Source of the DNA: Gemmata massiliana
Lineage (GTDB): Bacteria > Planctomycetota > Planctomycetia > Gemmatales > Gemmataceae
Direction of reading: 5' to 3'
Length of the DNA stretch: 64,000 nucleotides
Assembly: GCF_901538265.1 (NCBI RefSeq)
Contig: NZ_LR593886.1
Span: forward strand, 8,763,738-8,827,737
The notes below the pieces were generated by a model. That model was not told the origin of the DNA. It was given only the letters and a program-made list of their open reading frames with translations, and ran no database searches. Both the position numbers and the translations under genes were made by a program. Shown piece by piece: positions 25,337 through 42,775 of the stretch. Positions within the stretch are counted from its first letter, which is position 1, and every line of letters starts with the position of its first letter.

Positions 25337-25362
25337 CCGGTGTGGCCCGTTGGCCACACCGG
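25337..25362. repeat. 11-bp perfect hairpin
   Basis: CCGGTGTGGCC and GGCCACACCGG flank a 4-nt loop upstream of the XerC-like recombinase. It could be the terminator of the toxin-antitoxin operon or a recombinase binding site; no T tract follows. Confidence 0.6.
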
Positions 25363-25452
25363 CGAACAATTCGTGCCCTCGAGTTGACATTCTTCTTGAC
25401 TCACCTCCCCGCACCCGCATGGTGCGCGAAACACACTTTTCGCGCATTATCC

Positions 25453-26430
25453 GTGACCCACTTCCCAACCCTTAATATTCCTGGCTCGCATTCACCGCCT
25501 GTTAACGATCTCCGCTCCCAATTCGGCGAGGCGGTCGCGGCTTGGCTCACTCGTTCCCCTTCGGCCGAGACCCGGTCCGGTTACACCCGCGACCTGAGCC
25601 AGTTCATGGCGCATGCCAAGATCCCAGCAGGAGCATGGGACGAATTGCCTCGGGTCCGGCCGCGGCATATCGCTGCTTGGCGCGACGCGTTACTCTCGGC
25701 AGGACTCTCAAACGCCGCGATCACCCGGAAGCTCTCAGTAGTACGCTCCCTGTTCGGCTACCTGCGAGCCTATGGATATGACGGCCTTAACCCGGCCGAT
25801 ACCGCATTCGTGGCCGCGCCCCCCGTGCCACGTGACGGGAAAACGGTGGCCCTCACCCCAGAGGATTGTCGCCGCCTACTTGATGCGCCGGCGCTGACCA
25901 CGCCAGAGGGAATACGTGACCGCGCGCTCCTGGCGGTGCTGGCCTTCACTGGTTGCCGGGTCGGTGAGCTCTCCCGCTTGCGGGTCGCGGACTACAAAAC
26001 CAGCGGCGGGCACAAAGTCGTTGAGGTGCGCGGCAAAGGGGGTAAAGAGCGACGCATCCCACTCCATCCGGAAGCATTCGAGCGACTGGACGCGTGGCTT
26101 GAGGCGGCTGAGCTGGTTGGCGTAGCCGGGCCGCTGTTTCGCCCGCTACGGACCGCTCGAGGCGGCGGGAAAAGCGGCTTCCACACAGCACCGCTGTCAC
26201 GTAGGGCGGTACAGGCACTGGTGGAACGTTATGTTGCCCGGTTGAAGCTCGACCCAAATGTCACCGTTCACTCGTTCCGGGCCACCGCACTTACCACCGC
26301 TCGCGAGCGTGGGGCCGACATAGTAGACTTGCAGGATTTCGCTGGCCACGCGGACCCACGCACCACACTCGGTTATATCCGCAACCGAGACCGACTCAGT
26401 CGCTCTCCCGCCTATGTCCTGAAGTATTAA
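25453..26430 (+). CDS. XerC/D-like tyrosine recombinase
   Basis: A 325-residue protein. The core-binding domain (WLTRSPSAETRSGYTRDLSQ) is followed by a catalytic domain with Arg in FTGCRVGELSRLR, Lys in VRGKGGKERRIPLH, HSFRATALT, the GHADPRTTLGY His and nucleophile Tyr. All residues are intact. The start is uncertain: GTG 25453 gives a normal Xer length, while upstream codons run through a hairpin and look non-coding. It is unrelated in sequence detail to the integrase at 3159, so it may belong to a second nested element or serve cassette excision. Confidence 0.85.
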   Translation: MTHFPTLNIPGSHSPPVNDLRSQFGEAVAAWLTRSPSAETRSGYTRDLSQFMAHAKIPAGAWDELPRVRPRHIAAWRDALLSAGLSNAAITRKLSVVRSLFGYLRAYGYDGLNPADTAFVAAPPVPRDGKTVALTPEDCRRLLDAPALTTPEGIRDRALLAVLAFTGCRVGELSRLRVADYKTSGGHKVVEVRGKGGKERRIPLHPEAFERLDAWLEAAELVGVAGPLFRPLRTARGGGKSGFHTAPLSRRAVQALVERYVARLKLDPNVTVHSFRATALTTARERGADIVDLQDFAGHADPRTTLGYIRNRDRLSRSPAYVLKY

Positions 26431-26624
26431 TCGGCCGATCAGGGGTTGGTGTACGGGCCGGAACTGTGCGACGCGTCCGTCCTGAACAACGGCACCTTTG
26501 AACAATTCCACGCGCGGCTCTGGTCGCTCGCGCGGTTCGGGGGGGGCTGTTGCGGTAAAAGGCGCGCGAACCGACTCGATCGCTCCGGTATCATTCCATT
26601 GGCTGGGAGTTCGAGGAGGTGCTT

Positions 26625-28028: not shown

Positions 28029-28034
28029 ATAAAA

Positions 28035-28059
28035 GCGGGGCCGCAACCCGCGGCCCCGC
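28035..28059 (-). terminator. Minus-strand rho-independent terminator
   Basis: A 10-bp perfect GC stem (28035-28044 with 28050-28059) is followed on the minus strand by TTTTATTT. It serves the small minus gene at 28074-28229. Confidence 0.8.
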
Positions 28060-28073
28060 CGTGAAGTCGACGA

Positions 28074-28229
28074 TTACTTCTTCTTCGTGGGCGGGGCCGG
28101 GGTGTCGGTCGCTTCGGTTTCCGCCTCCGCCTCGACCGGCGCCGCGAGCGCGGGCAGGGCGCGCTTTTCCGGTTCAGTCAACTCGAGGTCGAGCTTTCGC
28201 TTGATGTAGCCCACGAGGACGACATGCAC
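28074..28229 (-). CDS. Small protein or gene remnant (51 aa)
   Basis: The minus-strand frame from GTG 28229 to TAA at 28074-28076 reads VHVVLVGYIKRKLDLELTEP, then an Ala/Glu-rich tail ending PAPPTKKK. A proper terminator follows. Upstream the frame also looks coding (KALRFF) until an in-frame TAG near 28249, so this may be the 3' end of a longer gene cut off when the plus-strand gene at 28224 was inserted. The two coding ends overlap by 6 bases. Confidence 0.45.
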   Translation of the reverse strand: MHVVLVGYIKRKLDLELTEPEKRALPALAAPVEAEAETEATDTPAPPTKKK

Positions 28230-29540
28230 GAAGAACCGAAGCGCCTTCTAGCGCAAGCACTCCGCGACACCTCAACCCTCCTCGTCGAAGCGCTGCCGCA
28301 CTTCATGCGAACGGTGGAGGTTCCTCGACCCGCCGAAGGGGGCGGATTGACTATCGTTGAAGAGCGGCAACCGAACTTCAAACGAGCGATGATTGCCATC
28401 ACACTGAAGCAGATGGATGTGGGCGCGGCGTTCGTCGAATCCTTCGTGAAGCACCACCCGGAGTTTTCGGGCATGGTGTTCGTTTCCACCGGCAGCGGTC
28501 TGGATCTCAAAACCTTCCTGGTCGGCGCGGTGGTTGACTACCTCTGGAAGAAACACCGAGCGATCCCGTTCCAGGAGCCGCAGATCTTCGGCGCCATTTC
28601 GCAACTTGAAAAGCTCCTCGACGAGAGAATGGCCACACTTTCCTTCCACGCAGAGCTGATGAACTTCACGATGGACGGCGACCTGCTCGAACTCCCGCTG
28701 GGCTGCCGAATCCGGCGCCTGAGCCCAGACGAGCTCATCAAAATCGTACCTAACCCAGAGACCGCGTTCTCCGAAATCGTTCGGAGCCACGATGAGTTCT
28801 GTATCGAAGGCGACCTGACGGCGACGATCACCACGGACGATAAAGCGTTCGGCTCGAAGGATCGAGTCTCGGCCGCGGAGATGGTTCTGAAAATCGTCGC
28901 CGGGATCCGGGCATTCAAAAGCGGCGGGATTCACACCAAGGAATTTCTCCTCCGCCCGAAGGGCTTTTTCCCATTCTCGACGGGGACGATGACCTTCGGG
29001 CACACGTGGCCGCACCTCGAGAAGACCGAGATCAAGAAGGAGGATGAGGCCCCACTCGTCGAGCACCTCAAGCAATACGTCGAGCTCAAAGAGAAATCGA
29101 TGCTGATGGCGTGCGCGCGACTCTGTGAGGCCCAGGTGCGAACGAGCCCACTCGATCGCGTGCTCGATGCGTGCATCGCACTCGAGTTGTTGTTGCTGGG
29201 CGGCATGCCAAAAGATGACCGAAAGGGAGAGCTGAAATACCGGTTCTCGATGAACTACGCCTCGCTTCACACAGGCGCCGCCCAGCGCCATGCCGCCTAC
29301 CAGGAGGCGCGGCACATTTACGATCTCCGTAGCACGATCGCCCACGGAAGCACTCCGGACGAACCTATCCGGCTCGGAGCCGACAAGGTCGGATTAATTG
29401 AGGCCGCTAACCGCACCATTGAGGTGCTTCGATTCGTCATCAAGCATTTCCTGCCGCAAGTTCAGGACACCCCGTACAAGAAGCCGGAATTCTGGGACGC
29501 GGCGCACTTCGGACTTCCCTATCCGCCACCGAAGAAGTGA
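28224..29540 (+). CDS. HEPN (Apea-like) domain protein
   Basis: A 438-residue protein. The C-terminal third (LDRVLDACIALELLLLGGMP, RHIYDLRSTIAHGSTPDEPI) matches Apea-like HEPN domains, with the RSTIAH motif as the expected RNase or nucleotide-transfer active site. The N-terminal part (VEALPHFMRTVEVPRP, LEKLLDERMATLSFHAELMN) is unassigned. Related HEPN proteins act in abortive infection. No strong ribosome site is seen before ATG 28224. Confidence 0.75.
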   Translation: MHEEPKRLLAQALRDTSTLLVEALPHFMRTVEVPRPAEGGGLTIVEERQPNFKRAMIAITLKQMDVGAAFVESFVKHHPEFSGMVFVSTGSGLDLKTFLVGAVVDYLWKKHRAIPFQEPQIFGAISQLEKLLDERMATLSFHAELMNFTMDGDLLELPLGCRIRRLSPDELIKIVPNPETAFSEIVRSHDEFCIEGDLTATITTDDKAFGSKDRVSAAEMVLKIVAGIRAFKSGGIHTKEFLLRPKGFFPFSTGTMTFGHTWPHLEKTEIKKEDEAPLVEHLKQYVELKEKSMLMACARLCEAQVRTSPLDRVLDACIALELLLLGGMPKDDRKGELKYRFSMNYASLHTGAAQRHAAYQEARHIYDLRSTIAHGSTPDEPIRLGADKVGLIEAANRTIEVLRFVIKHFLPQVQDTPYKKPEFWDAAHFGLPYPPPKK

Positions 29541-29766
29541 GCCGTTGCTTGACGGGGTGAGGCATGGCATGCTCGCAGGAATGGAAATCCCCAAACCGCC
29601 CCCGTCCTCTACGGCATCAATTTGAACTTTGGCTGGGTCGCGTCAGAAGCGAAGCCGAGCGAGCTGATAGTGTGCCAAAGCGGGGGTGGGGCTGAGAAGT
29701 GCTTATGGCCGTTGCTTGACGCGCGCGGGTCGTGATAGCGTCGATGCTCGTAATTGACGGAGGTTC

Positions 29767-30115
29767 ATGAGCACGCAGCAACTCTTCATTCCCGACTGGA
29801 TCAAGACCGGATTTCAGAACCGCCAAGGCACTTACACCGGCAAGTTCGCCTATGTCATCTACTTCGACGGCAAGGGCACGCTGCGCAAAGAAACGTCCTG
29901 GCAGTCGTGACGGAACAAGGACATCGAGCCCATTGAGTTCGATAACGTGCCGAGCCCCGAGCTTCGGGCAGAACCTTCCGGAAAGCGATACCTCACGCTC
30001 GTTCGATGTCGGCGTGGATTGCTGGAACCTGACGCCCGTGAGCTTCAACCAGGTCGCGGAGAAGATGGCGACGAAGAGGTTCGAGACGGTGGATCATCAC
30101 GGGGAGGAAGAGTGA
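29767..30115 (+). pseudogene. Decayed gene: in-frame stop and frameshift
   Basis: ATG 29767 opens MSTQQLFIPDWIKTGFQNRQ, then GTYTGKFAYVIYFDGKG, ending at TGA after SWQS. The same frame continues sensibly (RNKDIEPIEFDNVP), so the TGA probably replaced a Trp codon. Further on, coding character moves to another frame (SFDVGVDCWNLTPVSFNQ, KMATKRFETVDHHGEEE). The parent resembles uncharacterised phage-like proteins with the same opening. It ends in the GTGA junction with the next gene. Confidence 0.6.
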
Positions 30116-30399
30116 CTCTCGAGTCCATTCTCTGCGTCACGATGCGACTCCAGGACGGCCGCACGTTCTCGGTTGCAGGCCCCGCGCGTCACCCAAGTCT
30201 GTTCCTCGTTGCCCAGCGGAACGAATGGTCAACGGCGGGAGCGACGCAAGGGTTCCTGACGTCCGGAAGGCGGTTCGTAGATCGGGCCGAAGCATTCAGT
30301 ATTGCGCTCGCAGCGGGGCAGATCCTTTATGACGTGAACAACCCACCGCAGAGCATCGCTCCAACGCCGGGAATGCTTTATTCGGAAGACGTGTGGTGA
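30112..30399 (+). CDS. Small phage-like conserved protein
   Basis: A 95-residue protein starting at GTG 30112, overlapping the stop of the decayed gene before it. The pattern VTMRLQDGRTFSVAGPARHP, GFLTSGRRFVDRAEAFSIA, and the end GMLYSEDVW fits a small family found in phages and planctomycete islands. Function unknown. It lies 107 bases ahead of the DUF5131 gene. Confidence 0.6.
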   Translation: MTLESILCVTMRLQDGRTFSVAGPARHPSLFLVAQRNEWSTAGATQGFLTSGRRFVDRAEAFSIALAAGQILYDVNNPPQSIAPTPGMLYSEDVW

Positions 30400-30506
30400 G
30401 GTCGGGGAACTCGATTCCGTTCCTTCAAAATGTCCTCGAGTTCCTGTTCGGATAGGGTATTTTGAACAATGGTTCAGGACGGAATTTACGGCCTGGTGAT
30501 CACGAT

Positions 30507-31310
30507 ATGAGCGACAACTCCAAGATCGAGTGGACGGACGCAACGTGGAACCCCGTTCGGGGATGCACGAAGATCAGCCCCGGGTGCAAGCACTGCTACG
30601 CCGCCACGTTCGCCGAGCGGTTCCGCGGAGTGAAGGACCACCCCTACGAACAAGGATTCGATCTCCGCCTGGTCCCCGAGAAACTGGCGGAACCGTTCCG
30701 ACTGACCAAGCCGCGCAGAATCTTCGTCAACTCGATGAGCGACCTGTTCCACGCCGACATCGAAACCGATTACATCCTCCGCGTCGCCGAGGTGATGCGG
30801 GTCGCCAACTGGCACACCTACCAGGTGCTCACGAAGCGGTCGGAGCGGCTTCGCGACCTGCTCCGCGACGAACTCTCCGAGTTCGCAGATCAAGCGCACA
30901 TCTGGTGGGGAGTGAGCGTCGAAAACCGCAAGCACGGCCTGCCGCGCATCGACCATCTCCGGGACGCGCCGGCAGCGGTCCGTTTCCTCTCGGTCGAACC
31001 GCTACTCGAAGACCTTGGCGCCATCGATCTGACGGGGATATCATGGGTGATCGTCGGCGGAGAAAGCGGACACGGCGCGCGACCCATGAATGAGGCTTGG
31101 GTTCGGAGCATTCGTGACCAATGCGAAGCCGCGGGCGTCGAATTCTTCTTCAAGCAGTGGGGCGGGGTGAAGAAGGCGGAGGCCGGGCGCACCCTCGACG
31201 GCCGCACCCACGACGCGGCGCCGTCCGCGAGCCCGCACCCGATCGCTGACCGGGCGTCCCGCGCAGCCCAAATTCAACGGTTTGAACTCCAGTTGGCCGC
31301 GACTCAATGA
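30507..31310 (+). CDS. DUF5131 / phage Gp37-Gp68 family, three-Cys motif protein
   Basis: A 267-residue protein from ATG 30507. The opening KIEWTDATWNPVRGCTKISP and the Cys triad GCTKISPGCKHCYA define DUF5131 (Gp37/Gp68); the triad suggests a radical-SAM-like iron-sulfur site. Further family marks are FVNSMSDLFHADI, VLTKRSERL, GVSVENRKHGLPRIDHLR and WVIVGGESGHGARPM. It is followed 18 bases later by TcmP, the usual partner. The biochemical reaction is unknown; nucleic-acid modification or phage defence has been suggested for the pair. Confidence 0.9.
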   Translation: MSDNSKIEWTDATWNPVRGCTKISPGCKHCYAATFAERFRGVKDHPYEQGFDLRLVPEKLAEPFRLTKPRRIFVNSMSDLFHADIETDYILRVAEVMRVANWHTYQVLTKRSERLRDLLRDELSEFADQAHIWWGVSVENRKHGLPRIDHLRDAPAAVRFLSVEPLLEDLGAIDLTGISWVIVGGESGHGARPMNEAWVRSIRDQCEAAGVEFFFKQWGGVKKAEAGRTLDGRTHDAAPSASPHPIADRASRAAQIQRFELQLAATQ

Positions 31311-31328
31311 CACACTGAGGAGCCCACC

Positions 31329-32252
31329 TTGATCTCGTCGTTACAGAAGTTCGGCGACAAGACCTGGACCCAAGACAAGCTCGAGCGCGTCCGGAAGTAC
31401 CTGACTGCGTACACCACGATCATGCGGAAGCGAAGCCATCAGTTCGCGTACATCGACGGCTTCGCGGGAACGGGCTACCACGAGCTCAAGCAAGAGGCTG
31501 ACGACGGCGCGGGACTGTTCTCGGAGCCGGCCGAGCCCGAAGTGACCGCGTTCCTCGACGGCTCGGCGCGGATGGCGCTCCAAGTCGAACCCCGGTTCCA
31601 CAAGTACATCTTCATCGAGAAGAGCGCGAAGAAGGCCGCCGAGTTGGAGAAGCTGAAGTCCGAGTTCACGGACCGTGGCCCGGACATCCGCATTGAGACG
31701 GCCGACGCGAACGAGGCCATTCAGAAACTCTGCCGCGCTTCCTGGGACAAGCACCGCGCCGTTCTCTTCATGGACCCGTTCGGGATGCAGCTCACCTGGG
31801 ACACGGTAAGGGTAGTCGCCGCCACCCGAGCCATCGACACCTGGATCCTGTTCCCGCTCAGCGCGGTCAACCGGCTCCTGAAAAGCGACGCCAATATCCC
31901 GCTGTCGTGGAGGGCGAGACTCGACACGATGTTCGGCGAGCCGAACTGGTTCGACGAGTTCTTCCCGGAGAACCGGTCGGACAATCTCTTCGAAACCGAC
32001 GCGGTTCGCCGCCGGAAAGCTGCGACGATGGAGAAGATCGGCGAATACTTCAACCGCCGCCTGGCATCCGTGTTCGCGGGTGTCGCCCCGAACCCCTACA
32101 CCCTAAAAAACAAACTGGGAGTGCCTCTCTTCCAGTTGTGCTTCGCGGCGGGCAACCCGCACGCGGTCGACACCGCGGTCAAGATCGCCAAGGACATCCT
32201 GAAACGCGACCCCGTGAAGCCCGCACGCCTCCCCATGATGGAAGACGATTGA
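31329..32252 (+). CDS. tcmP: Three-Cys-motif partner protein TcmP
   Basis: A 307-residue protein starting with TTG at 31329. It carries the TcmP signature: QKFGDKTWTQDKLERVRKYL, FAYIDGFAGTGYH (a methyltransferase-like glycine loop), FIEKSAKKAAELEKL, VLFMDPFGMQLTW. The fold resembles an SAM-dependent methyltransferase. TcmP is defined by its fixed neighbourhood with DUF5131, which holds here. The module may modify RNA or DNA, but no reaction has been demonstrated. Confidence 0.9.
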   Translation: MISSLQKFGDKTWTQDKLERVRKYLTAYTTIMRKRSHQFAYIDGFAGTGYHELKQEADDGAGLFSEPAEPEVTAFLDGSARMALQVEPRFHKYIFIEKSAKKAAELEKLKSEFTDRGPDIRIETADANEAIQKLCRASWDKHRAVLFMDPFGMQLTWDTVRVVAATRAIDTWILFPLSAVNRLLKSDANIPLSWRARLDTMFGEPNWFDEFFPENRSDNLFETDAVRRRKAATMEKIGEYFNRRLASVFAGVAPNPYTLKNKLGVPLFQLCFAAGNPHAVDTAVKIAKDILKRDPVKPARLPMMEDD

Positions 32253-32306
32253 CGGCCGCCCCGGGCGATGAGAACGTGGCTGAGTAAAGCAGCTTAACGG
32301 AGGCGT

Positions 32307-32671
32307 GTGGAACTCGAAAGGAAGCGGTGCTCATCCTGTAAGGAAGAGAAAGAGCTTGGCGCCTTCGGGCGTAACGCCAGCAAAGTGGACGGGCTCCAGA
32401 CGTTTTGCCGCGCCTGCAACACCGTTTGGAGCCGCGAACGGTTCCGCGAGAACAAGGAACGATACCGGGCCTACAACAACGAGGTCCGCTACCGCAACCG
32501 GCAGCTCGCGCTCGACTACCTAGCCGCTCATCTCTGCGTCGACTGCGGAGAACTGTACCCATCGTTCTCGACTTCGACCACGTCAGCGAGGAAAAACGAA
32601 ACGACGTCTCGGCAATGCTCGGGGACTGTCTCGCGTGGTCGACCATCGAAACCGAAATCGCAAAGTGCGTT
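32307..32671 (+). pseudogene. HNH-type endonuclease-like gene, frameshifted and truncated
   Basis: Start at GTG or the downstream frame at 32307: MELERKRCSSCKEEKELGAF, then FCRACNTVW and AHLCVDCGE. Coding then moves to another frame near 32550 (PIVLDFDHVSEEKRNDVSAM, TEIAKC), the HNH-like second half. After EIAKC the expected CxxC end is missing and the sequence is the antisense of the SET gene. So the gene has a frameshift and has lost its 3' end. Confidence 0.7.
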
Positions 32672-32878
32672 GGCCAATTCGCCGGTCCCCTCGTCCCACT
32701 CGAACACGTAGTGCTCGAGAGCCTTGCCCCCGTCCCCTTCGGGCTGAGCCGGGATCCGGACGACCGGGCACACCTCGATTACCTCGCCCGCACGGTAGGC
32801 GCGTCCGGCGAACACGCCGCGCCCCATCCCGCGGACCTTGCGGACGTAGAGATCGGGCAATTCCTTCGCGGTGTTCAT
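32528..32878 (-). pseudogene. SET-domain protein, C-terminus lost
   Basis: The first ~70 residues from ATG 32878 match a small SET protein: VRKVRGMGRGVFAGRAYRAG, IEVCPVVRIPAQ, HYVFEWDEGTGELANAL. SET proteins then need an N-H-S/GEEITxxY segment, but here the frame runs into antisense of the HNH gene from about 32670. The catalytic half is therefore absent and the product is probably inactive. Confidence 0.7.
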
Positions 32879-32899
32879 GCGCCTGGCGGGGTGTTTTGA

Positions 32900-33320
32900 C
32901 GGTTCGGATCAATGGTTTTGCCGGGATCGATTCGGTCGGGCCGCCGCCTTGAGTTCAAAATGCGAGAGAACCGGAACTTGAAATCCGTGCCGCATGCGCA
33001 CTCGGAGCGATCCGCGTTTTCGCGTGAGCGGTTTCAAACGGGGGCACATTCCCGCACTGGAGCCGATCTCCGCGTGTCCGCTGTCGCACCGAGAACACGC
33101 ACGTACTGCACGTGCGGCGCCGGTTCTGCCTCGGCAAGCAACGATCCGACACAGTTCCGCGAATCGGGCGTGCCAGCGACATTGACCGTGAGCCGGTACG
33201 GTGCCGGTTTCATCATGTGATATCTGTGGAACGAAAGTGCTGGCGCGCTGAACGGATTTGTGACAAAAGTGGGAACTCGGCTCCGGCCGAGTCCCGCATC
33301 ACGATCCGAGGAGCACCACC
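32900..33320. other. Gene-free stretch
   Basis: No convincing coding frame, hairpin or repeat was seen between the SET remnant and the small gene at 33321. Confidence 0.4.
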
Positions 33321-33590
33321 ATGATCCCACAACTCGTCACGCAAACCGAGCGTACCGTCGACACGGTCCCAGCGAACACGAACCATCAGATCCAATCCCT
33401 GTCGGATCTGCTCGCCGCCCTCACGGGCAAACTGTCCCAGGCCGGACAATCGGCGACCGAGGCGCAGGTCGCACTGAGCTGCGGACAAACGACGGCCGCC
33501 ATCAGCACCTTGCTACCGACCGAGCAGGTGCTCCGGGACGCCCTGGCGCTGCACACCGCGGCCGTCGTGCTCCATCTCGAATCGTGCTGA
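33321..33590 (+). CDS. Small hypothetical helical protein
   Basis: An 89-residue protein starting at ATG 33321 with GAGGAG 6-9 bases upstream. The sequence (IQSLSDLLAALTGKLSQAGQ, LPTEQVLRDALALHTAAVVL) is Ala/Leu-rich and predicted to be a helical bundle. No family recognised. Confidence 0.55.
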   Translation: MIPQLVTQTERTVDTVPANTNHQIQSLSDLLAALTGKLSQAGQSATEAQVALSCGQTTAAISTLLPTEQVLRDALALHTAAVVLHLESC

Positions 33591-33860
33591 CCTACGTGCA
33601 CCTCGTCCGGGCCCGTTCGTCGGTGCCGCCTGACCGGCGGTTCAACGGGGGGATTCCCCCGCGGGCGTCAAGATCGAGCCCGGTGGGTGCCCCGGGCACG
33701 ATTTTCCCCTCGCGGTGCGATTCCTCGCGGACCAAAATCGCGCCCCGGTCAATCTGGACACCCGCTCCCCCTGAGCGACGGGCATCCGTGCTTCATAAGG
33801 CTCGGCCCGCTCTGCGAGCCGTGTCTTACGAAGCAACTACTCAGTAATAAGGACGCACTC

Positions 33861-34094
33861 ATGACACATACAACAGAAACCGACGCCCGCCCGGAACGGA
33901 ACCCAACGGAAGATGCGGACGAGCGCGCGGAGTTACTCGCGGCCCTGAAGGCGGCGTCCGAGTGGATCGACGCACAACTCTTCGTGCGGCGGACCGGGAT
34001 CCAGGAGCGGGTCCGTAACGCGATCACCCGGGCCGAGGCGACCAAGCCCGCACCCGACCCCGATCCTGCTCCGGTCGAACGTCGAGAGATTTAA
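33861..34094 (+). CDS. Small hypothetical protein
   Basis: A 77-residue protein from ATG 33861 with AAGGA upstream. Contains ELLAALKAASEWIDAQLFVR, helical, and a Pro-rich acidic tail. The longer frame beginning 33687 lacks protein character. Function unknown. Confidence 0.5.
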   Translation: MTHTTETDARPERNPTEDADERAELLAALKAASEWIDAQLFVRRTGIQERVRNAITRAEATKPAPDPDPAPVERREI

Positions 34095-34380
34095 TCCCGG
34101 GCAACCGCTGGAACTCGGTGGCATAACAACCGGTCCCAGTGTTCCTCCGTTTCGTGGACCCGCTGCGGGTCCAGGTCGGAGGTGGCTGCGGGCACGACGC
34201 GTGAGTGGACAGCTGAGCTGGCTAGTCGACCGGGAGGAGTTCGCGGTCAAGGCGGTGACGTGGGTGTCAACTGAAGTCGAGAATAGAGAGCCGCGACTCG
34301 TGCTCGGGCGAGAGCATCGGCACTTGCTCTTGTTCGCGGCTCCTGCTAGCGTGCGAGACGATCCCATTAGAAGACCACGT

Positions 34381-35562
34381 ATGGCCCAAAAGAAACCTGC
34401 CCCCAAATCTCGCACCCCGGCGAAGCCGAAGACGGGACTTCTGCCCGGCAGCGCGGGCGCACCGTATCACGGGCTGCTCTCCGAGCTGTCCGCACTTCTC
34501 GCTCACGCTCGTGCCGCAACGGCCCGGGCGGTCAACGGGGTGATGACCGCGACCTATTACGAACTGGGCCGCCGCATCGTTGAGTTCGAGCAGGGCGGAA
34601 AGGAGCGCGCCGGGTACGGGGAAGAAATCATCACGCGGCTTTCGGCGGACCTGACCAAGCAATTCGGGCGCGGGTTCTCGCGGTCCAACCTGTTCCAGAT
34701 CCGCGGCTTTTACCTCGGCTGGCAGATAGTCCAGACACCGTCTGGACTTTTCCAAATCCGGGCGGCGCACGATCCGGGCGGAGAATTTGGGCCCCTACCG
34801 GCGCCGGCGGGAGCACTGGTCACGACCGAAACTTTTCCGCTGCCGTGGTCCCATTACGTCCGGCTGATGACCGTTGCCGGTGCTGCGGCCCGTCAGTTCT
34901 ACGAAGAAGAAGCGATTAAGGGCGGCTGGTCGGTGCGCCAGCTCGACCGCCAGATCTCGACTCAGTTCTACGAGCGTCTGGCGGGATCGAAACGCAAAAA
35001 CGAATTGCTCGCCAAGGTACACGTCCCGCAGGCACAAGATGCGATCGACCCGTCGCTCCTGGTGCGCGACCCGTACTTGTTAGAGTTCCTGAATCTGGCG
35101 GACGAGTACGGGGAAAGCGAACTCGAAGAAGCGATCATCCGCAACCTCGAAGGGTTCCTCGTCGAACTCGGCCGCGGGTTCACCTTCGTCGCGCGCCAGC
35201 GGAAGATCCGCATCGACGCGCAGTGGTACAAAATCGACCTGCTTCTCTTCCACCGGCAGCTCCGGTGCCTCGTCGTCATTGACTTGAAAATCGGTGCATT
35301 CAGCCATGCCGACGCCGGGCAGATGAACATGTACCTGAACTACGCGCGCGAGCACTTAACGGAGCCCGGCGAGAACGAGCCCGTCGGCCTGATCCTGTGC
35401 AGCGAGAAGAGCGACACGGTCGTGCGCTACGCGATGGGTGGCATCAACGCCAAGGTGTTCGCGTCCGAATACCTCACGGTCCTGCCCCCGGAAGACGAAC
35501 TGCGGGCGACCATCGAACGCACCCGGCAGGCGCTATCCATACGGCCGAGGAAGAGTGACTAA
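34381..35562 (+). CDS. YhcG/DUF1016 PD-(D/E)XK nuclease-like protein (copy 1, intact)
   Basis: A 393-residue protein from ATG 34381. The DUF1016 N-terminal domain (TATYYELGRRIVEFEQGGKE, FSRSNLFQIRGFYLGW) is followed by PDDEXK_nuc: EEAIIRNLEGFLVELGRGFT, DLLLFHRQLRCLVVIDLKIG with the D-x-K active-site pair, GQMNMYLNY. The usual length is about 340-390. YhcG proteins occur in mobile and defence islands and are predicted DNA nucleases. A second copy, split by an intron, lies at 39313-42775. Confidence 0.9.
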   Translation: MAQKKPAPKSRTPAKPKTGLLPGSAGAPYHGLLSELSALLAHARAATARAVNGVMTATYYELGRRIVEFEQGGKERAGYGEEIITRLSADLTKQFGRGFSRSNLFQIRGFYLGWQIVQTPSGLFQIRAAHDPGGEFGPLPAPAGALVTTETFPLPWSHYVRLMTVAGAAARQFYEEEAIKGGWSVRQLDRQISTQFYERLAGSKRKNELLAKVHVPQAQDAIDPSLLVRDPYLLEFLNLADEYGESELEEAIIRNLEGFLVELGRGFTFVARQRKIRIDAQWYKIDLLLFHRQLRCLVVIDLKIGAFSHADAGQMNMYLNYAREHLTEPGENEPVGLILCSEKSDTVVRYAMGGINAKVFASEYLTVLPPEDELRATIERTRQALSIRPRKSD

Positions 35563-35795: not shown

Positions 35796-36701
35796 TCAAG
35801 TAGCCCGGGGCACCCGGTGAAACTCGGTAGCGTAAAGGAGCAACCGTTTCCACCGCTCCTCCGCTTCGCGCACCCGCTGCAGGTCCAAATCGAGTGTGAA
35901 CTTGAGTGTGCGGGAGGACTCGTCCTGTTCCTGAATGCCGACGGCTCGGGTTCCGTAGATTCCGGTGTCGCACAGCAAGTCCGGCTCGCGCGATATTTCG
36001 GCCTCGCGAACGATCCAGAGGCGTACCCCGCGATGGTGCTGCTCCGCGAGCCACGGGTAAATGCCGGCCTCGGGTACCGGCGCGCGGCTCGGCCACAACG
36101 CGCGTGACAGGATCACGATCCGTTCGACCGCCACTCCGCGGCCCACGGCCTCGAAATTCGCACGCATGCTCTGGCGCCCCGGTGCGTCCTGCCAGTAGTC
36201 CTTCGTTCGCACCCACGCGACCGAGCGGTACGACTTGAGTCCTGGGGACATCAACAGGTGCTCGTACACTGTGCGCCAACTTTCGGTCAGCGCGAACACC
36301 ACACGCCCCTCCCCCAATTCCGCGACCTGCGCCGCGACCGATTCGAGCTTCTGGACCGCAGCGTCACGCAGGATCCCGTCAGATAACCGGGCCACGGCCA
36401 GCAACCCGTCGCACAGGGAGCGGTACACACGGAATACGTCCGGATCGCCGGCCAGGGCCAGCGGGACCGACAGATTTTCGAAGGCTGCGTTGCGGCGTCG
36501 CTCACGCTCTTCTTCTTGGCCCAGGTATGTGAGGAACAGTCCTCCCACGACGCTCACCAAGCATCCAAGTGTTGCGAGCTGTGTCGGTAGCGTGCCGAAT
36601 GCCGCGACGAGGCCCATGAGAACGGACCCGAGTGCTGCGCTGAATAGGAACCGGAAACTCAGCAAAGCCGAGCGCTTTTGAAGAGGTTGTTCACGTGACA
36701 T
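35796..36701 (-). CDS. Membrane-anchored protein, paralog A
   Basis: A 301-residue protein from ATG 36701 (MSREQPLQKRSALLSFRFLF). Two hydrophobic segments follow (SAALGSVLMGLVAAFG, LATLGCLVSVVGGLFLTYLG), then a soluble domain with RANFEAVGRGVAVERIVILS, RALWPSRAPVPEAG and RLWIVREAEI. The soluble domain is clearly related to that of the 38048-38953 product. No family recognised. The two genes flank an aminotransferase in the same direction, so all three probably function together. Confidence 0.7.
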   Translation of the reverse strand: MSREQPLQKRSALLSFRFLFSAALGSVLMGLVAAFGTLPTQLATLGCLVSVVGGLFLTYLGQEEERERRRNAAFENLSVPLALAGDPDVFRVYRSLCDGLLAVARLSDGILRDAAVQKLESVAAQVAELGEGRVVFALTESWRTVYEHLLMSPGLKSYRSVAWVRTKDYWQDAPGRQSMRANFEAVGRGVAVERIVILSRALWPSRAPVPEAGIYPWLAEQHHRGVRLWIVREAEISREPDLLCDTGIYGTRAVGIQEQDESSRTLKFTLDLDLQRVREAEERWKRLLLYATEFHRVPRAT

Positions 36702-36815
36702 GGTGCGCACATTAGAGCACACGCAGCACGCGCGCAAGTACAAGGTAAAATTCGGGTTGACAACTGGAGCGTGTAACTCGATGCGGGGCGTCGAACGTGG
36801 TGCGGTGTTTTGGGA

Positions 36816-38018
36816 TCACGCCACTGTGTGCAACGCGCGGGACAGGTGCTCCCGTTCCGCGGGAGTAAACTCGGTGGCGGGCATCGACAGGCGGACCAAC
36901 CCGCCCTCGTACGTCGTCGCCGAAACCCCGGCGTCCCGTAGCGTCGATCGTAAAATATCGGGAGAAATGGACCGCACCGACGCCCGCTCTGCTTCCAAGA
37001 GTAAGATTCCCGAACGGAGCAGAGGGTCCGGCAATAGGGGTTTCCACCCGACCGACGGCGCGAGTTCTGTCACCACGCGCATGTTCTCCGCGCGAGACAT
37101 CATGCTTTGGGGTCGCGCGTCCACAATCGCCGCGCGGGCCGTGAACAACGGCACCAAGTTCACGGTTTCCGTGCCACTCGGAGCGCCCGTTTCCAACAGG
37201 GTCGAGAACCGCAAGAGCGGGTCGTCGAGATCATCCGTTGTCGTCATGTTCTCGATCACCGCATCAATCGTTCGGACCGATCGCGGGCGACCGTAGAACC
37301 CGAGTCCCATCGGGTGGTGCGCGCCGAGCCACTTGTGGGTCCCGGTCAGGTACAAGTCGCAATACTCGGCGCCCAGTTGCCCCGGCACGTGGCAGAACTC
37401 CTGGGCCCCGTCCACGACCACGAACCACACCCGGTGTGTCGCTTCCAGGCGCCGTACGATGCGCTCGACCGGGAGCCGAACGCCCCAGTTACTCACCGCC
37501 GAAAGGAACAGGCCGTCGCATCGACCCAGACCGTACGCGCGTGTCACGCGGTCGATCAATTCGGCCTCGCTGAGTCGACCGGACAACGCGTCGGACCGCA
37601 ACTCCAAAGTGGTTACGGACCGTCTCTCCCGTTCTGCCTCGTGTCTCAAAAGGGTGTGGTACCCGGGCCAACCGAGGTCCGTGACCAGGACGTTGCGGCA
37701 CGTCCAGAGCAGTGCTTGAGCGGCCAACTTCATCAACAGGGCCGACCGGTGGGCCACGAGCACAGGCAGATCCGCGCGGTGCCCGACGAGTGCGCGCAAG
37801 GACTGCTTCAGTTCGCCAATCCCCGCCCAGTGCTCGAGCCCGGTGTACCGCGGTTCTGCGGTGAGCGGGCACGCCTTCAACCCGTGCCGCATGAAGCGCT
37901 CGAAGTAGGCGGAATTACCCTCTGCGGCCGCAAGTGTGTTGAGCGCCCGTTCGGCCCGTTGGGCCGTTGGGGACGTGAGGCCGAACCGGGCCGTATCGAG
38001 ATACAGGAGGTCGGGCAA
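36816..38018 (-). CDS. Class-V aminotransferase-like PLP enzyme
   Basis: A 400-residue protein of the cysteine-desulfurase/kynureninase fold: LYLDTARFGLTSP at the start, VWFVVVDGAQEFCHVPGQLG with the cofactor Asp, and DLYLTGTHKWLGAHHPMG with the Schiff-base Lys. TTG 38018 is taken as start because GGAGAG lies just upstream and the fold begins there; the longer frame to 38360 overlaps the previous gene. The substrate is unknown. Its place between two membrane paralogs suggests a signalling or conflict role rather than housekeeping. Confidence 0.85.
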   Translation of the reverse strand: MPDLLYLDTARFGLTSPTAQRAERALNTLAAAEGNSAYFERFMRHGLKACPLTAEPRYTGLEHWAGIGELKQSLRALVGHRADLPVLVAHRSALLMKLAAQALLWTCRNVLVTDLGWPGYHTLLRHEAERERRSVTTLELRSDALSGRLSEAELIDRVTRAYGLGRCDGLFLSAVSNWGVRLPVERIVRRLEATHRVWFVVVDGAQEFCHVPGQLGAEYCDLYLTGTHKWLGAHHPMGLGFYGRPRSVRTIDAVIENMTTTDDLDDPLLRFSTLLETGAPSGTETVNLVPLFTARAAIVDARPQSMMSRAENMRVVTELAPSVGWKPLLPDPLLRSGILLLEAERASVRSISPDILRSTLRDAGVSATTYEGGLVRLSMPATEFTPAEREHLSRALHTVA

Positions 38019-38047
38019 CGGTGCTCTCCGGGAGTCGGTGCCTGATC

Positions 38048-38953
38048 TTACCCGCCCCGGGCGGCCCGGTCCAAGAGGTCTCCGAACGGAATCCCCAAAT
38101 GGGACAATCGGTCCAAGCGGTCCTGTGCCGAGTGAACCGCGTCGGTGGCAAAATCGAGTACGACACGCGCGGTTTGGTCCCGGCCCTCGAGTTCCCGTGT
38201 ACCGGCGGCCCAGTCGTCGAACACGCACACGTCGCCCGTTCCCGCTAACTCCGCGGGCAGATTGCACTCGCGGACCACGATCAACCGGGGGGCGTGCGCC
38301 TGCTGGTCTTCGAGCCACGACCGAACGCCTTCGATCGGAAGCAACTGGTCGGCGGGCCACAGCGCGTCCGGGAACACGAGGATCCGTTCGACCAGAACCC
38401 CTCGGCGCACGGCCGCAAAAGTCGCGCGAAGGCTCTCAAGCTCGGCCGGTTCGCGGGTCCGTTCGATGGTGCGGATCCGAACGACGGCTCGGTACTCCTT
38501 TAACTCCGGAACGGCGAGCACCGCGTCATGAGCCACGTACCAGGAACCGGTCCCGTTGAACGCCTCACCGTGGCCCGACGCCGCAGCTCGGAACTGCACT
38601 CCCAGTGCAATTAACCGTTGAATCCGTATGTCCTTGAAGCTCCCGTTCGGATGGGCGGCGACCGTGCTCAGCGCCTCGCCCAAGATGCGGTCCAGGCGCG
38701 CCAGTTCCGTGTCCGCCGTAATTTCGGGAGGGGCCTGTGGCCTTTCGAGTGGGTCGGTACGGGACCGCGCCCGTTTGATCGATGCCCCAACCGCGCCGCT
38801 CACGATGCCGAGAATGGTACCCGCGATTGCGAGCGGCATGGCGCCTACACCGGTTAGAGCGAGGATGACCAACAGTGCCCCTCCGGCGGCGGGAACCCAG
38901 ACGTGAGTACCGCCGAGAGCGGAGAAGCAGAACACGGAGCGCGCACGTGACAT
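38048..38953 (-). CDS. Membrane-anchored protein, paralog B
   Basis: A 301-residue protein from ATG 38953 (MSRARSVFCFSALGGT), with two hydrophobic segments (AAGGALLVILALTGVG, PLAIAGTILGIVSGAVGA) and a soluble domain: RATFAAVRRGVLVERILVFP, DALWPADQLLPIEG, RLIVVRECNLPAEL. It aligns with paralog A over this domain (R-x-F-x-A-V-x-R-G-V, VERI, ALWP, VRE). It ends 29 bases before the aminotransferase. The domain has no catalytic signature that I recognise and could be a sensor. Confidence 0.7.
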   Translation of the reverse strand: MSRARSVFCFSALGGTHVWVPAAGGALLVILALTGVGAMPLAIAGTILGIVSGAVGASIKRARSRTDPLERPQAPPEITADTELARLDRILGEALSTVAAHPNGSFKDIRIQRLIALGVQFRAAASGHGEAFNGTGSWYVAHDAVLAVPELKEYRAVVRIRTIERTREPAELESLRATFAAVRRGVLVERILVFPDALWPADQLLPIEGVRSWLEDQQAHAPRLIVVRECNLPAELAGTGDVCVFDDWAAGTRELEGRDQTARVVLDFATDAVHSAQDRLDRLSHLGIPFGDLLDRAARGG

Positions 38954-39312
38954 GGGGCGCAGGGTAAGGAACCGGCCCCCGAAGGCAAGCACGACCTGAT
39001 GTGCAAGGCCGTAAGGTGTTCGGGCGCGGCGAACACACCGAATGCGGGGGGTTGTAAAGATCCCGGGAGCAACACGCGACCCCGCGGTATCGTGTTCTCA
39101 AATCACTCATTACTCACCGGAGCGTGCCCCCGTCAGCACGGGAACCGCGTCCGAGTTGATCATGGCCATGCTGAGCCTGTTCGAGTCGCACATTAACGCC
39201 CCGCGGCGCTCGGGGCCGTCACGCCATTTTATGTCACCGGGGCGGAGGGAATCGTTGCTTGAGTTCTCTTGCCGGGTGCGGTAGGGTCGGCGGTGAAAGG
39301 AACAGCGTCCCT
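38954..39312. other. Gene-free stretch
   Basis: No supported gene, terminator or repeat was seen between paralog B and the split yhcG gene. Confidence 0.4.
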
Positions 39313-39879
39313 ATGGGCAAACGCAAACTGCCAGCAAAGACGGCACCTCAATCAACTACCCTGCCCGCTGACTTCGAGGCGGTGGTGGCAATGATCCGCG
39401 ATGCCCGGGCGCGGGTCGTGGCGCAGGTGAATTCCACGCTCGTCGATCTATACTGGCGCATCGGCGCCCACTTGTCCGCGAAAATCGCGGTGGGTGAGTG
39501 GGGGGATGGAACCGTTGAACAACTTGCCACTCACATTCGCCGGATGCAGCCGAACGCCACCGGGTTCTCGGCCAAAAACCTGTGGCGAATGCGGCAGTTC
39601 TACGACACGTACGCGAACTCCCCAATTCTCTCGCCGCTGGTGAGAGAATTGTCCTGGACCCACAACCTCATCATTTTGAGCCGCAGCAAGCGGGAGGACG
39701 AGCGGGAATTTTACCTGCGGGTGTGCCAGCGGGAGAGGTGGACCAAACGGGAATTGGAACGCCAGCTCGATGGCGCATTGTTCGAGCGCGTCGCTTTATC
39801 GCCTGTGAAACTGTCAATCCCGATGGCGCAAGCTCATCCCAGCGCAACGGACGTGTTCCGGGACAGTTATTTGGTCGAA
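39313..39879 (+). CDS. YhcG/DUF1016 protein copy 2, exon 1
   Basis: The first 189 codons of a second YhcG-like gene: MGKRKLPAKTAPQSTTLPAD, VDLYWRIGAHLSAKIAVGEW, ATGFSAKNLWRMRQFYDTYA, ending DVFRDSYLVE. The frame is interrupted exactly after GAA at 39877-39879 by a group II intron starting GTGCG. Splicing to 42275 restores FLELPHPHAEADLQRGLVER in frame and yields a normal 355-residue protein. If splicing fails, a truncated N-terminal domain results. Confidence 0.9.
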
Positions 39880-40336
39880 GTGCGCCATGACAACCGTGAA
39901 GGCATTACTGACTCAGTCAGCAGAACACTCGGGAGGGGGTGTCTAAGCCGATCAACTTACTCACCGTCGAAAGACGTTGGGGAACATAGCCTGTTGGTGA
40001 AGCGGCGGTGGGCGACGAAGTGCCCGAACCCACGTGCCGCAAGGCTTGCGAAGAAGGGTGAAGGCTATACTGCTTGAACTCCAGTTCCACCGGACCTCAG
40101 GTAGTCCCGTCGGCATGGCACTCGATGACGACGTCGACCGCTCCGCTCGCTTAAATCGATGGCGTGCGGAATCCCGGCGGTCGGGGTGACGGGTGATGAG
40201 CCCGCCCACGGAACGAACGGAGCACCTACCCTTCGCTCGGACGTGTCTTCACGGCGAAGCATGGGATGGCCTACCGGGCGCGAGCCCCACGGCCACGGAG
40301 TCCCCGTAGTAGTCCGCGCCGGGGAAAGCCCGGCAC

Positions 40337-42172
40337 ATGGCGAAGGGGGACAGGTCACTCGGTGCCACGGATCCTGAGGTGCGCGAGATGCGTAACGCCG
40401 AAACGATCCTGGGCATCATCCGGGAGCGCGGTCGGAAACGGCTGCCGCTCGGGGACGTCTACAGACAACTGTTCAACCCGGCTCTGTACCTGCACTCCTA
40501 CGCACGGCTCTACCGTAACAGTGGAGCCCTGACGCAAGGAGCGACAGCCGAGACCGTGGACGGGATGTCGCAGGGGAAGATCCACGGGATCATCGAGCGG
40601 GTCCGCCGCGAGAGTTACCGTTGGGCCCCCGTGCGACGGGTTCACATTCCGAAACCGAAAGGAGGTACCCGGCCGCTCGGGATTCCCACCTGGTCGGATA
40701 AGCTGCTCCAAGACGTAGTCCGCGCCATTCTGGAGGCGTACTACGAATCGCGCTTCTCTGACCGCTCCCACGGTTTCCGGCCGGGGCGCGGGTGCCACAC
40801 CGCCTTGACGACGATCAAGAAGGTGTGGACCGGCACCAAGTGGTTCATCGAGGGTGACATCCGGGGCTGCTTCAACAATATCGAGCATTCGGTCCTGTTG
40901 GGCATCCTCCGGCGAGACATCACTGACAACCGCTTTCTCCGGCTGATACAGAACCTCATCCGGGCGGGTTACCTGGAGGACTGGCGACTACACCCCACCC
41001 TGAGCGGGTCACCGCAGGGCGGGACGGTCAGCCCAATCCTCTCGAACATCTACCTGGACCAGTTGGACCAGTTCGTCGAGCAGACACTGATTCCGGAGTA
41101 CACGAAAGGCAACCGGCGGGCGAAGAACCCGGACTACAATCGGATCTCGAGCCGGGCGCGGTACTGTCGGAGGACGGGGCGGGTGGAAGAGGCGAAGGCG
41201 CTGGAAGCGGCCCGACGGGCCGTCCCGGCGAACGACCCTCACGACCCCAACTACCGCCGACTGTATTACGTCCGGTACGCGGACGATTTTTTGCTCGGGT
41301 TCGCCGGACCGAGGTCGGAGGCGGAAGCGATCCGGGACCGACTGTCGGCGTTCCTGGCTCAAGAACTGAGACTGGAACTGTCGGCGGAGAAGACCCTGAT
41401 CACCCACGCCCATACCGAGAAAGCTCGCTTTCTCGGGTACGACATCTCGGTCGCCCACTGCGACACCAAGATCGCCGCCAACCGGCGTTCGGTGAACGGG
41501 GTGATGACCCTGCGGATGCCACCTTCCTTCGTGGCGGAACGGAGCCGCTTCTACACGAGGGACGGCAAGCCCATCCACCGGATGGAACGAACTCACGACT
41601 CGGACTACAGCATCGTCTGTGGTTACCAGGCGGAGTATCGGGGCTTCGTGCAGTACTACCAACTCGCGGATAATATCGCCTGGCTGAACCGGCTACACTG
41701 GGTCATGCAGACCTCGCTGTTGAAAACGTTGGCCCACAAGCACCGGTCATCGGTCGCGAAGTTGGCCCGCCGATTCAAGGCGAAAGTCGAAACGCCGCAT
41801 GGTCCCAGGACGTGCCTGGAGGTGCGGGTGACGCGGGAGGGGAAACCGCCGCTGGTCGGACGATTCGGCGGGCTGCCACTTCGGACAACCCTGTCGGCGT
41901 CCATCGACGATCGACTTCTTGCTCGCAAGAGCCGGGGCCGCAGCGAACTGCTCCAGCGTGTTCTGGCGGACGCGTGCGAGGCGTGTGGGTCCACGGAGAA
42001 CGTGGAAGTCCACCACGTCCGCAAGCTCGCCGACTTGAACCGCCGGAACGGACGCCCGCCACCCGACTGGGTGCGACTCATGGCCTCTCGGCGGCGGAAG
42101 ACGCTGGTCCTCTGCCGCGTATGCCACGACAACATCCATGCTGGGCGGCCGCTGCGACCCAAGTCGGAATGA
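40337..42172 (+). CDS. ltrA: Group II intron reverse transcriptase/maturase with HNH endonuclease
   Basis: A 611-residue intron-encoded protein. RT motifs: RRVHIPKPKGGTRPLGIPTW, HGFRPGRGCHTAL, FIEGDIRGCFNNI, SGSPQGGTVSPILSNIYL and YYVRYADDFLLG with the YADD catalytic pair. A maturase X region follows (YSIVCGYQAEYRGFVQYYQL), then an HNH domain at the C-terminus (CEACGSTENVEVHHVRKL, LVLCRVCHDNIHAG) for second-strand cleavage. All motifs look intact. It promotes splicing of its intron and retrohoming. Confidence 0.96.
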   Translation: MAKGDRSLGATDPEVREMRNAETILGIIRERGRKRLPLGDVYRQLFNPALYLHSYARLYRNSGALTQGATAETVDGMSQGKIHGIIERVRRESYRWAPVRRVHIPKPKGGTRPLGIPTWSDKLLQDVVRAILEAYYESRFSDRSHGFRPGRGCHTALTTIKKVWTGTKWFIEGDIRGCFNNIEHSVLLGILRRDITDNRFLRLIQNLIRAGYLEDWRLHPTLSGSPQGGTVSPILSNIYLDQLDQFVEQTLIPEYTKGNRRAKNPDYNRISSRARYCRRTGRVEEAKALEAARRAVPANDPHDPNYRRLYYVRYADDFLLGFAGPRSEAEAIRDRLSAFLAQELRLELSAEKTLITHAHTEKARFLGYDISVAHCDTKIAANRRSVNGVMTLRMPPSFVAERSRFYTRDGKPIHRMERTHDSDYSIVCGYQAEYRGFVQYYQLADNIAWLNRLHWVMQTSLLKTLAHKHRSSVAKLARRFKAKVETPHGPRTCLEVRVTREGKPPLVGRFGGLPLRTTLSASIDDRLLARKSRGRSELLQRVLADACEACGSTENVEVHHVRKLADLNRRNGRPPPDWVRLMASRRRKTLVLCRVCHDNIHAGRPLRPKSE

Positions 42173-42181
42173 GTGGCTGGA

Positions 42182-42215
42182 GAGCCGGATGATGCGAAAG
42201 TATCAAGTCCGGTTC
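42182..42215 (+). ncRNA. Group II intron domain V
   Basis: A 34-nt hairpin: GAGCCGGAT at the 5' side pairs with GTCCGGTTC at the 3' side, with AGC catalytic triad, inner stem GATGC/GTATC and a GAAA tetraloop. This is the catalytic core of the ribozyme. Confidence 0.93.
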
Positions 42216-42274
42216 GGAGGGGGGCGGATGGAAAAGGTCCGGGCGACCGGAACCTCGCCAGCCGCCTACCCAAC

Positions 42275-42775
42275 TTCTTGGAACTGCCACACCCGCACGC
42301 GGAAGCCGATCTGCAACGCGGGTTGGTGGAGCGGCTGAAAGACTTTCTGCTCGAACTCGGCCGCGATTTTTGCTTCGTCGGCAGCCAGTATCCGCTCCAG
42401 GTCGGGGGCAAGGATTTCGCCCTCGACCTGCTGTTCTTCCACCGCGGGATGGCCGCTCTGGTTGCGATCGAGCTCAAGATTTCGGAGTTCGAGCCCGGGC
42501 ACCTCGGGCAGTTAGAATTCTACCTCGAAGCCCTGGACCGGGACGTGCGCAAGCCGCACGAGCGCCCGTCCGTCGGGGTGCTCTTGTGCGCCACCAAAAA
42601 CGCGGAGGTCATCGAATACGTGCTCAGCCGGTCGGCCTCCCCGGCTGTCGTCGCTGAATACCACACCCAGTTGCCGGACAAAGCCCTTCTTCAAGCCAAA
42701 TTGCACGAATTCTATCAGCTCGCTTCACCACCGGCGGGTGAGGCCTCGCAGTTGGAAACAAAGAAAACGGAATAA
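42275..42775 (+). CDS. YhcG/DUF1016 protein copy 2, exon 2
   Basis: The last 166 codons plus stop of the split gene. It carries the nuclease half: GLVERLKDFLLELGRDFCFV, DLLFFHRGMAALVAIELKIS with the E-x-K pair, GQLEFYLEALDR, and the end LPDKALLQAKLHEFYQLASP. It has no start of its own worth calling and depends on intron splicing with 39313-39879 for expression as a full protein. Confidence 0.9.
   Translation, partial: FLELPHPHAEADLQRGLVERLKDFLLELGRDFCFVGSQYPLQVGGKDFALDLLFFHRGMAALVAIELKISEFEPGHLGQLEFYLEALDRDVRKPHERPSVGVLLCATKNAEVIEYVLSRSASPAVVAEYHTQLPDKALLQAKLHEFYQLASPPAGEASQLETKKTE

What the first reader, a model, noticed from the sequence alone, without database searches (positions are those of the whole stretch)
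39313..42775. Group II intron splits a yhcG gene exactly in frame
Exon 1 ends at 39879 with GAA and exon 2 starts at 42275 with TTC; joined they restore the YhcG sequence DSYLVE-FLELPHP. The intron has GTGCG and AC ends, domain V and an intact RT-maturase-HNH protein. Splicing may act as a switch on a predicted nuclease. Insertion in a protein gene rather than after a terminator is less common for bacterial introns.
Basis: partly seen in the sequence, partly recalled or inferred. Interest (0 to 1): 0.62.

Follow-up and report, generated by a model that had tools for sequence, protein, structure and literature searches.

The report
Homing intron splits predicted yhcG nuclease
A self-splicing mobile intron sits inside a predicted bacterial nuclease gene at a position that clean splicing would repair, and related introns occupy exactly the same spot of the same gene in bacteria of two other phyla, so this gene looks like a recurrent landing site for such introns.

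Summary
A 2,395-nt group II intron (39880-42274) lies in phase 0 between exon 1 (39313-39879, DUF1016_N) and exon 2 (42275-42775, PDDEXK domain) of a yhcG gene. The joined protein matches the nuclease model across the junction. The intron's reverse transcriptase-maturase-HNH protein is intact. Exon-binding sequences covary with exon sequence across 46 related introns (0 of 5000 shuffles), and domains V-VI fold as expected. The same site of yhcG holds related introns in Gemmata sp. IIL30, a cyanobacterium and an acidobacterium; a single origin of the four is rejected (AU p 0.016), though that group was named after a first tree. Intron-free yhcG genes exist in relatives. I read it as an Ll.LtrB-like homing intron that recurrently enters a conserved codon motif of a candidate anti-phage nuclease (PADLOC PDC-S02) and is spliced out. 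Splicing in the cell and any switch role are untested. It is a new member of a known kind; searches of the open-licence library found no paper that joins group II introns with yhcG or DUF1016.

The parts
39313..39879 (+). yhcG exon 1 (DUF1016_N; 189 codons, ends in phase 0)
   Evidence: PF17761 2.4e-42; PADLOC PDC-S02 models down to 7.2e-63
39867..39879 (+). intron-binding sites IBS2+IBS1 (exon -13..-1), identical in Gemmata sp. IIL30 although exon 1 codons 86-183 are only 72% identical in DNA
39880..42274 (+). group II intron, 2395 nt, GTGCG...AC
   Evidence: RF00029; ends agree with relatives
40098..40104 (+). EBS2 (CAGGTAG): 7 of 7 pairs with exon -7..-13, three of them G-U
40153..40154 (+). 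delta-like nucleotides (AA), can pair with exon 2 +2 and +1
   Evidence: positions
40156..40160 (+). EBS1 (TCGAT): pairs with exon -2..-6, one of them G-U; -1 does not pair
40337..42172 (+). intron-encoded protein: RT (YADD), maturase, HNH; true start possibly 40388
   Evidence: Pfam; LtrA 2.2e-113; start
42180..42274 (+). ribozyme domains V and VI; unpaired A at 42268, 7 nt from the 3' end, is the predicted branch point
42275..42775 (+). yhcG exon 2 (YhcG_C PDDEXK domain; IELK motif read by eye)
   Evidence: PF06250 1.7e-49
34201..35562 (+). second, intron-free yhcG in the window; scores 9 of 13 against this intron's EBS1+EBS2, the interrupted gene 12 of 13

Best explanation
A mobile group II intron of the IIA, Ll.LtrB-like kind that has homed into yhcG. 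It recognises the 13 nt before and the first nucleotides after the insertion point through EBS2, EBS1 and delta-like pairing; these nucleotides code for the conserved motif D-x-Y-x-x-[DE]|F-L-x-L. In RNA, helped by its own maturase, it is expected to splice out and restore a 355-aa YhcG; the excised intron with its protein can then enter intron-free yhcG alleles. It spreads between distantly related yhcG genes because the target codons are conserved, and probably two sublineages reached this site independently. Shown here: anatomy, open frames, covariation of pairing, same-site relatives, intron-free alleles. Inferred: splicing in the cell, retrohoming, direction of transfer.
For: Exact in-frame junction with a model match across it. 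RF00029 and the fold of domains V-VI. EBS1 and EBS2 columns covary with each intron's own upstream exon in 46 dereplicated introns (of 52 aligned, of 84 rows): 0 of 5000 shuffles reach the observed value, z 10.7-13.9. The two nucleotides just 5' of EBS1 covary with exon +1 and +2, ranks three and one of all columns tested. Same insertion point in yhcG in L080, L037 and L041. Intron-protein identity exceeds both exon identities in 6 of 6 pairs (99 v 81/92, 69 v 29/46, 69 v 31/46, 60 v 37/51, 60 v 37/53, 61 v 40/50 %). 4 of 4 intron proteins (read from codon 18) and 8 of 8 exons hold no stop. AU test against one origin of the four, p 0.0156. 32 yhcG loci align straight through the site; the seven nearest score 11-12 of 13 against this intron's EBS, a level reached at 0.08% of positions in six of them.
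Against: No RNA data. NCBIfam's equivalog for group II RT-maturases scores 263.6 bits, under its cut-off of 300. Low dN/dS in the exons (0.11-0.26) cannot be dated after the insertion, since exon dS (0.18-1.14) far exceeds intron-protein dS (0.015). The near-identity of the intron in Gemmata sp. IIL30 is not unique: neighbouring stretches are 96-100% identical, so exchange of a block explains it as well as homing. A higher identity of intron proteins than of exons may partly reflect different rates of the two proteins. The clade that holds this intron has members elsewhere (L038 antisense to a transposase-like frame, L039 in another transposase-like frame, both named by eye), so it is not strictly yhcG-specific. 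Position -1 does not pair and pairing leans on G-U. L037 pairs only 4 of 7 at EBS2 and L041 4 of 7 at EBS1 in the fixed register. Outside Gemmata there are two cases, one titled a metagenome-assembled genome with masked bases in exon 2.
Confidence: 0.84

Rival explanations
1. The intron landed recently and splices poorly or not at all, so in effect it knocks out yhcG; the exons look intact only because too little time has passed.
For: Exon divergence between the two Gemmata alleles is older than the intron's divergence (intron-protein dS 0.015 against exon dS 0.18-1.14), so intact exons say little about splicing in these two.
Against: Intron protein and both exons are open in 4 of 4 copies from three phyla; domains V-VI fold well in the window (in the other copies only read by eye); EBS sites largely match the local exon.
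Confidence: 0.1
2. Splicing, or re-targeting of the spliced mRNA by the free intron particle, sets the level of the YhcG nuclease (a switch or damper), as Ll.LtrB does to its relaxase gene. This adds to the main reading and does not exclude it.
For: LtrA of Ll.LtrB is the nearest solved relative; its spliced intron re-opens ligated exons and lowers host-gene mRNA (PMC6003770, abstract). The pairing sites this needs are present.
Against: No evidence from this locus. I made no search for regulatory elements beyond the Rfam scan of the window, which gave only a tRNA and this intron. The read-through from exon 1 into the intron is 195, 195, 69 and 81 nt in the four copies, so no common truncated product is kept outside Gemmata.
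Confidence: 0.12
3. The two parts are made as separate proteins from unspliced RNA (a split DUF1016_N / nuclease pair).
For: In the window exon 1 stays open 195 nt into the intron, and a GTG at 42173 follows the intron protein's stop and is in frame with exon 2. In L041 exon 2 is open 249 nt upstream, with an in-frame ATG.
Against: The open stretch before exon 2 differs in length and content (102, 81, 84, 249 nt), and in L080 a 1-nt deletion cuts off the GTG. Ribosome-binding sites were not looked for.
Confidence: 0.04

Closest known systems
Ll.LtrB of Lactococcus lactis (in a relaxase gene) and its homologue Ef.PcfG
   Same: Intron protein aligns to LtrA over residues 41-600 (2.2e-113), HNH included; EBS1/EBS2 and delta-type exon pairing; in a protein gene; horizontal spread of such introns is described (abstracts)
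   Different: Host gene is a predicted nuclease; other phyla; splicing and mobility untested here
Group II introns in radC (O.i.I2 of Oceanobacillus iheyensis)
   Same: Intron in a protein gene whose product must be restored by splicing (PMC4424553, passage); two relatives found here lie near the 3' end of radC-like frames (L093, L095, product named by eye)
   Different: O.i.I2's protein lacks YADD; this one keeps it
Other introns of the same protein family found here
   Same: In-frame insertion in frames with Rad52, CHAP, Helicase_C, DUF6094, FtsK-like, MPTase-PolyVal and TraG domains
   Different: Other target genes, with EBS1/EBS2 that fit those targets

Membership tests
Group II intron (mobile, RT-bearing) | Domains V/VI with unpaired branch-point A, GTGCG...AY ends | tested here: met
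Group II intron (mobile, RT-bearing) | RT with YADD, maturase and endonuclease domains | tested here: met
   Pfam; YADD. NCBIfam TIGR04416 is below its cut-off (263.6 v 300)
Group II intron (mobile, RT-bearing) | Exon recognition by base pairing (EBS1-IBS1, EBS2-IBS2) | tested here: met
Group II intron (mobile, RT-bearing) | Splicing and retromobility | not testable with these tools
   needs RNA and genetics
Group IIA / mitochondrial-like class | 3' exon pairs with nucleotides next to EBS1 (delta-delta') | tested here: met
   exon +1 and +2 covary with the two nucleotides 5' of EBS1 (38 introns, not dereplicated, 100 shuffles); that this marks IIA is recalled
Group IIA / mitochondrial-like class | Intron protein groups with ML proteins | tested here: inconclusive
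   LtrA ahead of the other solved RTs, several of them shorter chains (2e-113 v 2e-38 and weaker); no tree with reference classes was built
Group IIA / mitochondrial-like class | Full IIA secondary structure of domains I-IV | not tested
   only domains V-VI were folded
Group IIC (terminator-inserting) | Insertion after an intrinsic terminator | tested here: not met
   the insertion lies inside a coding frame
YhcG / DUF1016 predicted nuclease | DUF1016_N followed by YhcG_C PDDEXK domain | tested here: met
PADLOC PDC-S02 phage-defence candidate | Match to its models | tested here: met
   PDC systems are candidates by 'guilt by embedding', not validated (PMC10855318, passages)
Splicing switch | Condition-dependent splicing that changes nuclease level | not testable with these tools
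   no data

The most novel reading that the evidence does not exclude
yhcG, a candidate anti-phage nuclease, is a standing home for LtrB-like introns across phyla, and the intron, by re-opening spliced yhcG mRNA through its EBS/IBS pairs, damps the nuclease: a selfish RNA that both depends on and holds down a defence gene.
Probability: 0.12. Interest if true: 0.72.

Novelty: new member of a known kind. Interest (0 to 1): 0.42.

Why it matters
It is a clean natural case of an intron using a conserved protein motif as a homing site in three phyla, with intron-free alleles in the same family as controls. It makes testable whether group II introns merely survive in candidate defence genes or also control them. 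Beyond that it is an ordinary example of how such introns persist in bacterial coding genes.

Tried and rejected
Intron younger than the alleles, hence homed separately in the two Gemmata species: weakened, because identity along the locus is a mosaic (36807-39006 96-100%, 39007-39606 94-95%, 39607-39806 71%, intron 98-100%, exon 2 about 92-98%, 35807-36806 74-85%).

A conserved unspliced nuclease product: not kept in L080, though L041 leaves one open.

Further split yhcG copies among partial hits: seven regions fetched, none with a match to this intron or its protein. Contig ends explain L214, L215, L217 and the pair L218/L219; L213 is cut by a transposase-like frame at the same motif; L216 ends its match at codon 134 and what follows was not resolved.

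More yhcG-sited introns: strict searches found only the centre genome itself in 392 Planctomycetota (window's genome, E 1e-120), 386 genomes of L037's phylum (E 1e-150) and 396 of L041's phylum (E 1e-120), all drawn from larger groups. Of 339 relatives in genome contigs 79 loci were returned; a yhcG search over these, the 46 viral-contig loci and the relatives' loci (L008-L165) found split yhcG only in L008/L080/L119 (one locus), L037 and L041, and an intact yhcG beside L040. Ends could not be set for 23 of 84 rows. A remnant in G005 lacks its 5' part and lies beside an IS66-like frame (named by eye).

Literature: no paper in the held library has 'group II intron' with 'yhcG' or with 'DUF1016'; most subscription papers are not held. 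Searches were seen as listings, and five papers as outline or passages. No solved structure matches YhcG of L037 by sequence.

Full report
What is there. The window lies in a 10.1-Mb single-contig genome of the same genus as G009. G009's contig has the same length as Gemmata sp. IIL30 scaffold00007, so I take the host to be a Gemmata species (inference). Between 39313 and 42775 a yhcG gene is cut by a 2,395-nt group II intron. Joining GAA|TTC gives a 355-aa protein in which the YhcG_C model crosses the junction.

The intron. Its protein has RT, maturase and HNH domains, keeps YADD and is nearest, among solved structures, to LtrA of Ll.LtrB (2.2e-113 over residues 41-600; next 1.6e-38, a shorter chain). 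Domain V folds as a hairpin with a GAAA loop and a two-nucleotide bulge, and domain VI has one unpaired A seven nucleotides from the 3' end (42268).

Pairing. I aligned the first 430 nt of 52 related introns whose 5' ends were set by motif alone (of 84 rows: 8 left out by name as repeats or wrongly oriented or otherwise unsuited, 24 without the motif in range) and asked which columns are complementary to each intron's own exon. Two places stand out. After dereplication to 46, EBS1 (z 10.7-11.7) and EBS2 (z 12.5-13.9) are not matched by any of 5000 shuffles. At least 5 of 7 positions pair for EBS1 in 38 of 52 introns and for EBS2 in 35 of 52; the rest pair worse, some not at all. In 38 introns with both ends set (37 with a letter in those columns, not dereplicated), exon +2 and +1 covary with the two nucleotides just before EBS1 (z 5.2 and 3.5, ranks one and three; 100 shuffles each). 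That is the delta-delta' arrangement, recalled as typical of group IIA. The 3' ends in that set came from a motif and, where several fitted, from the more open joined frame.

The site. Four interrupted yhcG genes share one insertion point: the window (SYLVE|FLEL), Gemmata sp. IIL30 (SYLVE|FLEL), Phormidesmis priestleyi (PYILD|FLML) and a Pyrinomonadaceae assembly (EYLFD|FLDL). In 36 aligned YhcG proteins, some near-duplicates, the F after the junction is invariant and the seven-residue window there ranks 29th of 349 in conservation. The three distinct introns differ in EBS1: the window's pairs at 5 of 7 positions, L037's at 6 of 7, L041's at 4 of 7 in the fixed register, or 6 of 6 at -2..-7 when I shift the register by one by hand on the sequence. 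EBS2 pairs at 7, 4 and 5 of 7.

History. Intron proteins are more alike than either exon in 6 of 6 pairs. This fits movement between alleles, but the proteins may also differ in rate. In the 84-row tree the window, L080, L037, L038 and L039 form a supported clade and L041 lies outside. In a 28-row tree, rows chosen by me, holding the four yhcG introns together costs 47 log-likelihood units, AU p 0.0156; the group was named after the first tree had been seen, so this suggests two arrivals rather than proves them. Window+L080+L037 form a branch of moderate support, 87/82.

The two Gemmata copies. Exon 1 codons 86-183 are 72% identical in DNA, exon 2 codons 94%, the intron protein gene 99.3%. The last 15 nt of exon 1, which hold IBS1 and IBS2, are identical. 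Along the locus identity jumps between 71% and 100%. Either the intron homed into an already different allele, or a block was exchanged and then recombined. Because exon dS exceeds intron-protein dS, low dN/dS in the exons does not prove selection after insertion.

Intron-free alleles. In 95 genomes of the family 37 carry a yhcG relative at E 1e-20 or better. Of 46 loci tried (some near-duplicates) align through the site in one piece; that is the rule by which they were counted. The other 14 are the split copies of the interrupted genes and partial or weak hits. The seven nearest (61-64% identity) score 11-12 of 13 against the window intron's EBS (position -7 counted twice), against 0.08% of positions at 11 or more in six of these loci. 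Four farther, near-identical loci also reach 11, the remaining ones 6-10. The match is partly due to shared ancestry of the exon. The intron-free paralogue in the window scores 9.

What relatives do. Ten spliced frames (eight other host genes and the yhcG of L037 and L041) were scanned, picked by me from the open joined frames. In seven of ten one Pfam domain crosses the junction (L050, L087, L104, L113, L114, L037, L041); in three it does not (L060, L088, L108), and L060's matches are below Pfam's cut-offs (junctions). Other relatives lie next to domain V sequences of further group II introns or in RT frames. A review states that most bacterial introns lie outside housekeeping genes, while CL and ML lineages are found in some (PMC4424553, passages).

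The host gene. Both exons match PADLOC's PDC-S02 models, a candidate phage-defence gene found by context and not validated. The surroundings hold a TrwC-type relaxase, a phage-integrase-family recombinase, a second yhcG and a kinase/FGE protein, as in a mobile or defence-rich region. Whether YhcG cuts DNA, or defends, was not tested.

Verdict. A well-preserved homing group II intron in a conserved spot of yhcG, very probably spliced. The repeated use of this one site in three phyla is the part worth keeping. A regulatory role is possible by analogy with Ll.LtrB (PMC6003770, abstract) but rests on no evidence from this locus.

Noticed in passing
window 11788-13702 (- strand): A diversity-generating retroelement: RT frame 11873-13279, template repeat 11788-11907, variable repeat 13583-13702 at the FGE-type C-terminal domain of a 1489-aa protein with kinase and DUF4062 domains (13550-18019). 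16 of 18 differences between the repeats are at template adenines.
   Followed up: partly
window 20161-35562: TrwC-type relaxase, phage-integrase-family recombinase, DUF5131, a PADLOC PDC-M41A match and an intron-free yhcG close together: a mobile or defence-rich region.
   Followed up: partly
L213 (G1288:C1107) 1799-2434: Another yhcG of the family is cut at the same KDSY motif by an antisense transposase-like frame, not by an intron (product named by eye).
   Followed up: partly
L039 6805-6960: Domain V of this relative is itself interrupted by a sequence with a GTGCG start, probably a nested second group II intron.
   Followed up: no
L042, L043, L044, L054 (Calothrix sp. NIES-4105): Four copies of a relative interrupt RT frames, probably of other group II introns, at the conserved DIE|NFD motif.
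   Followed up: no
L040 4534-8489 and L009 (G014): Two relatives share a target in a small unnamed gene whose second exon starts YGGSGPAQLAL (L009 read by eye on its reverse strand). In L040 an intact yhcG, 70% identical to the window's second yhcG, starts about 0.5 kb after the intron.
   Followed up: no
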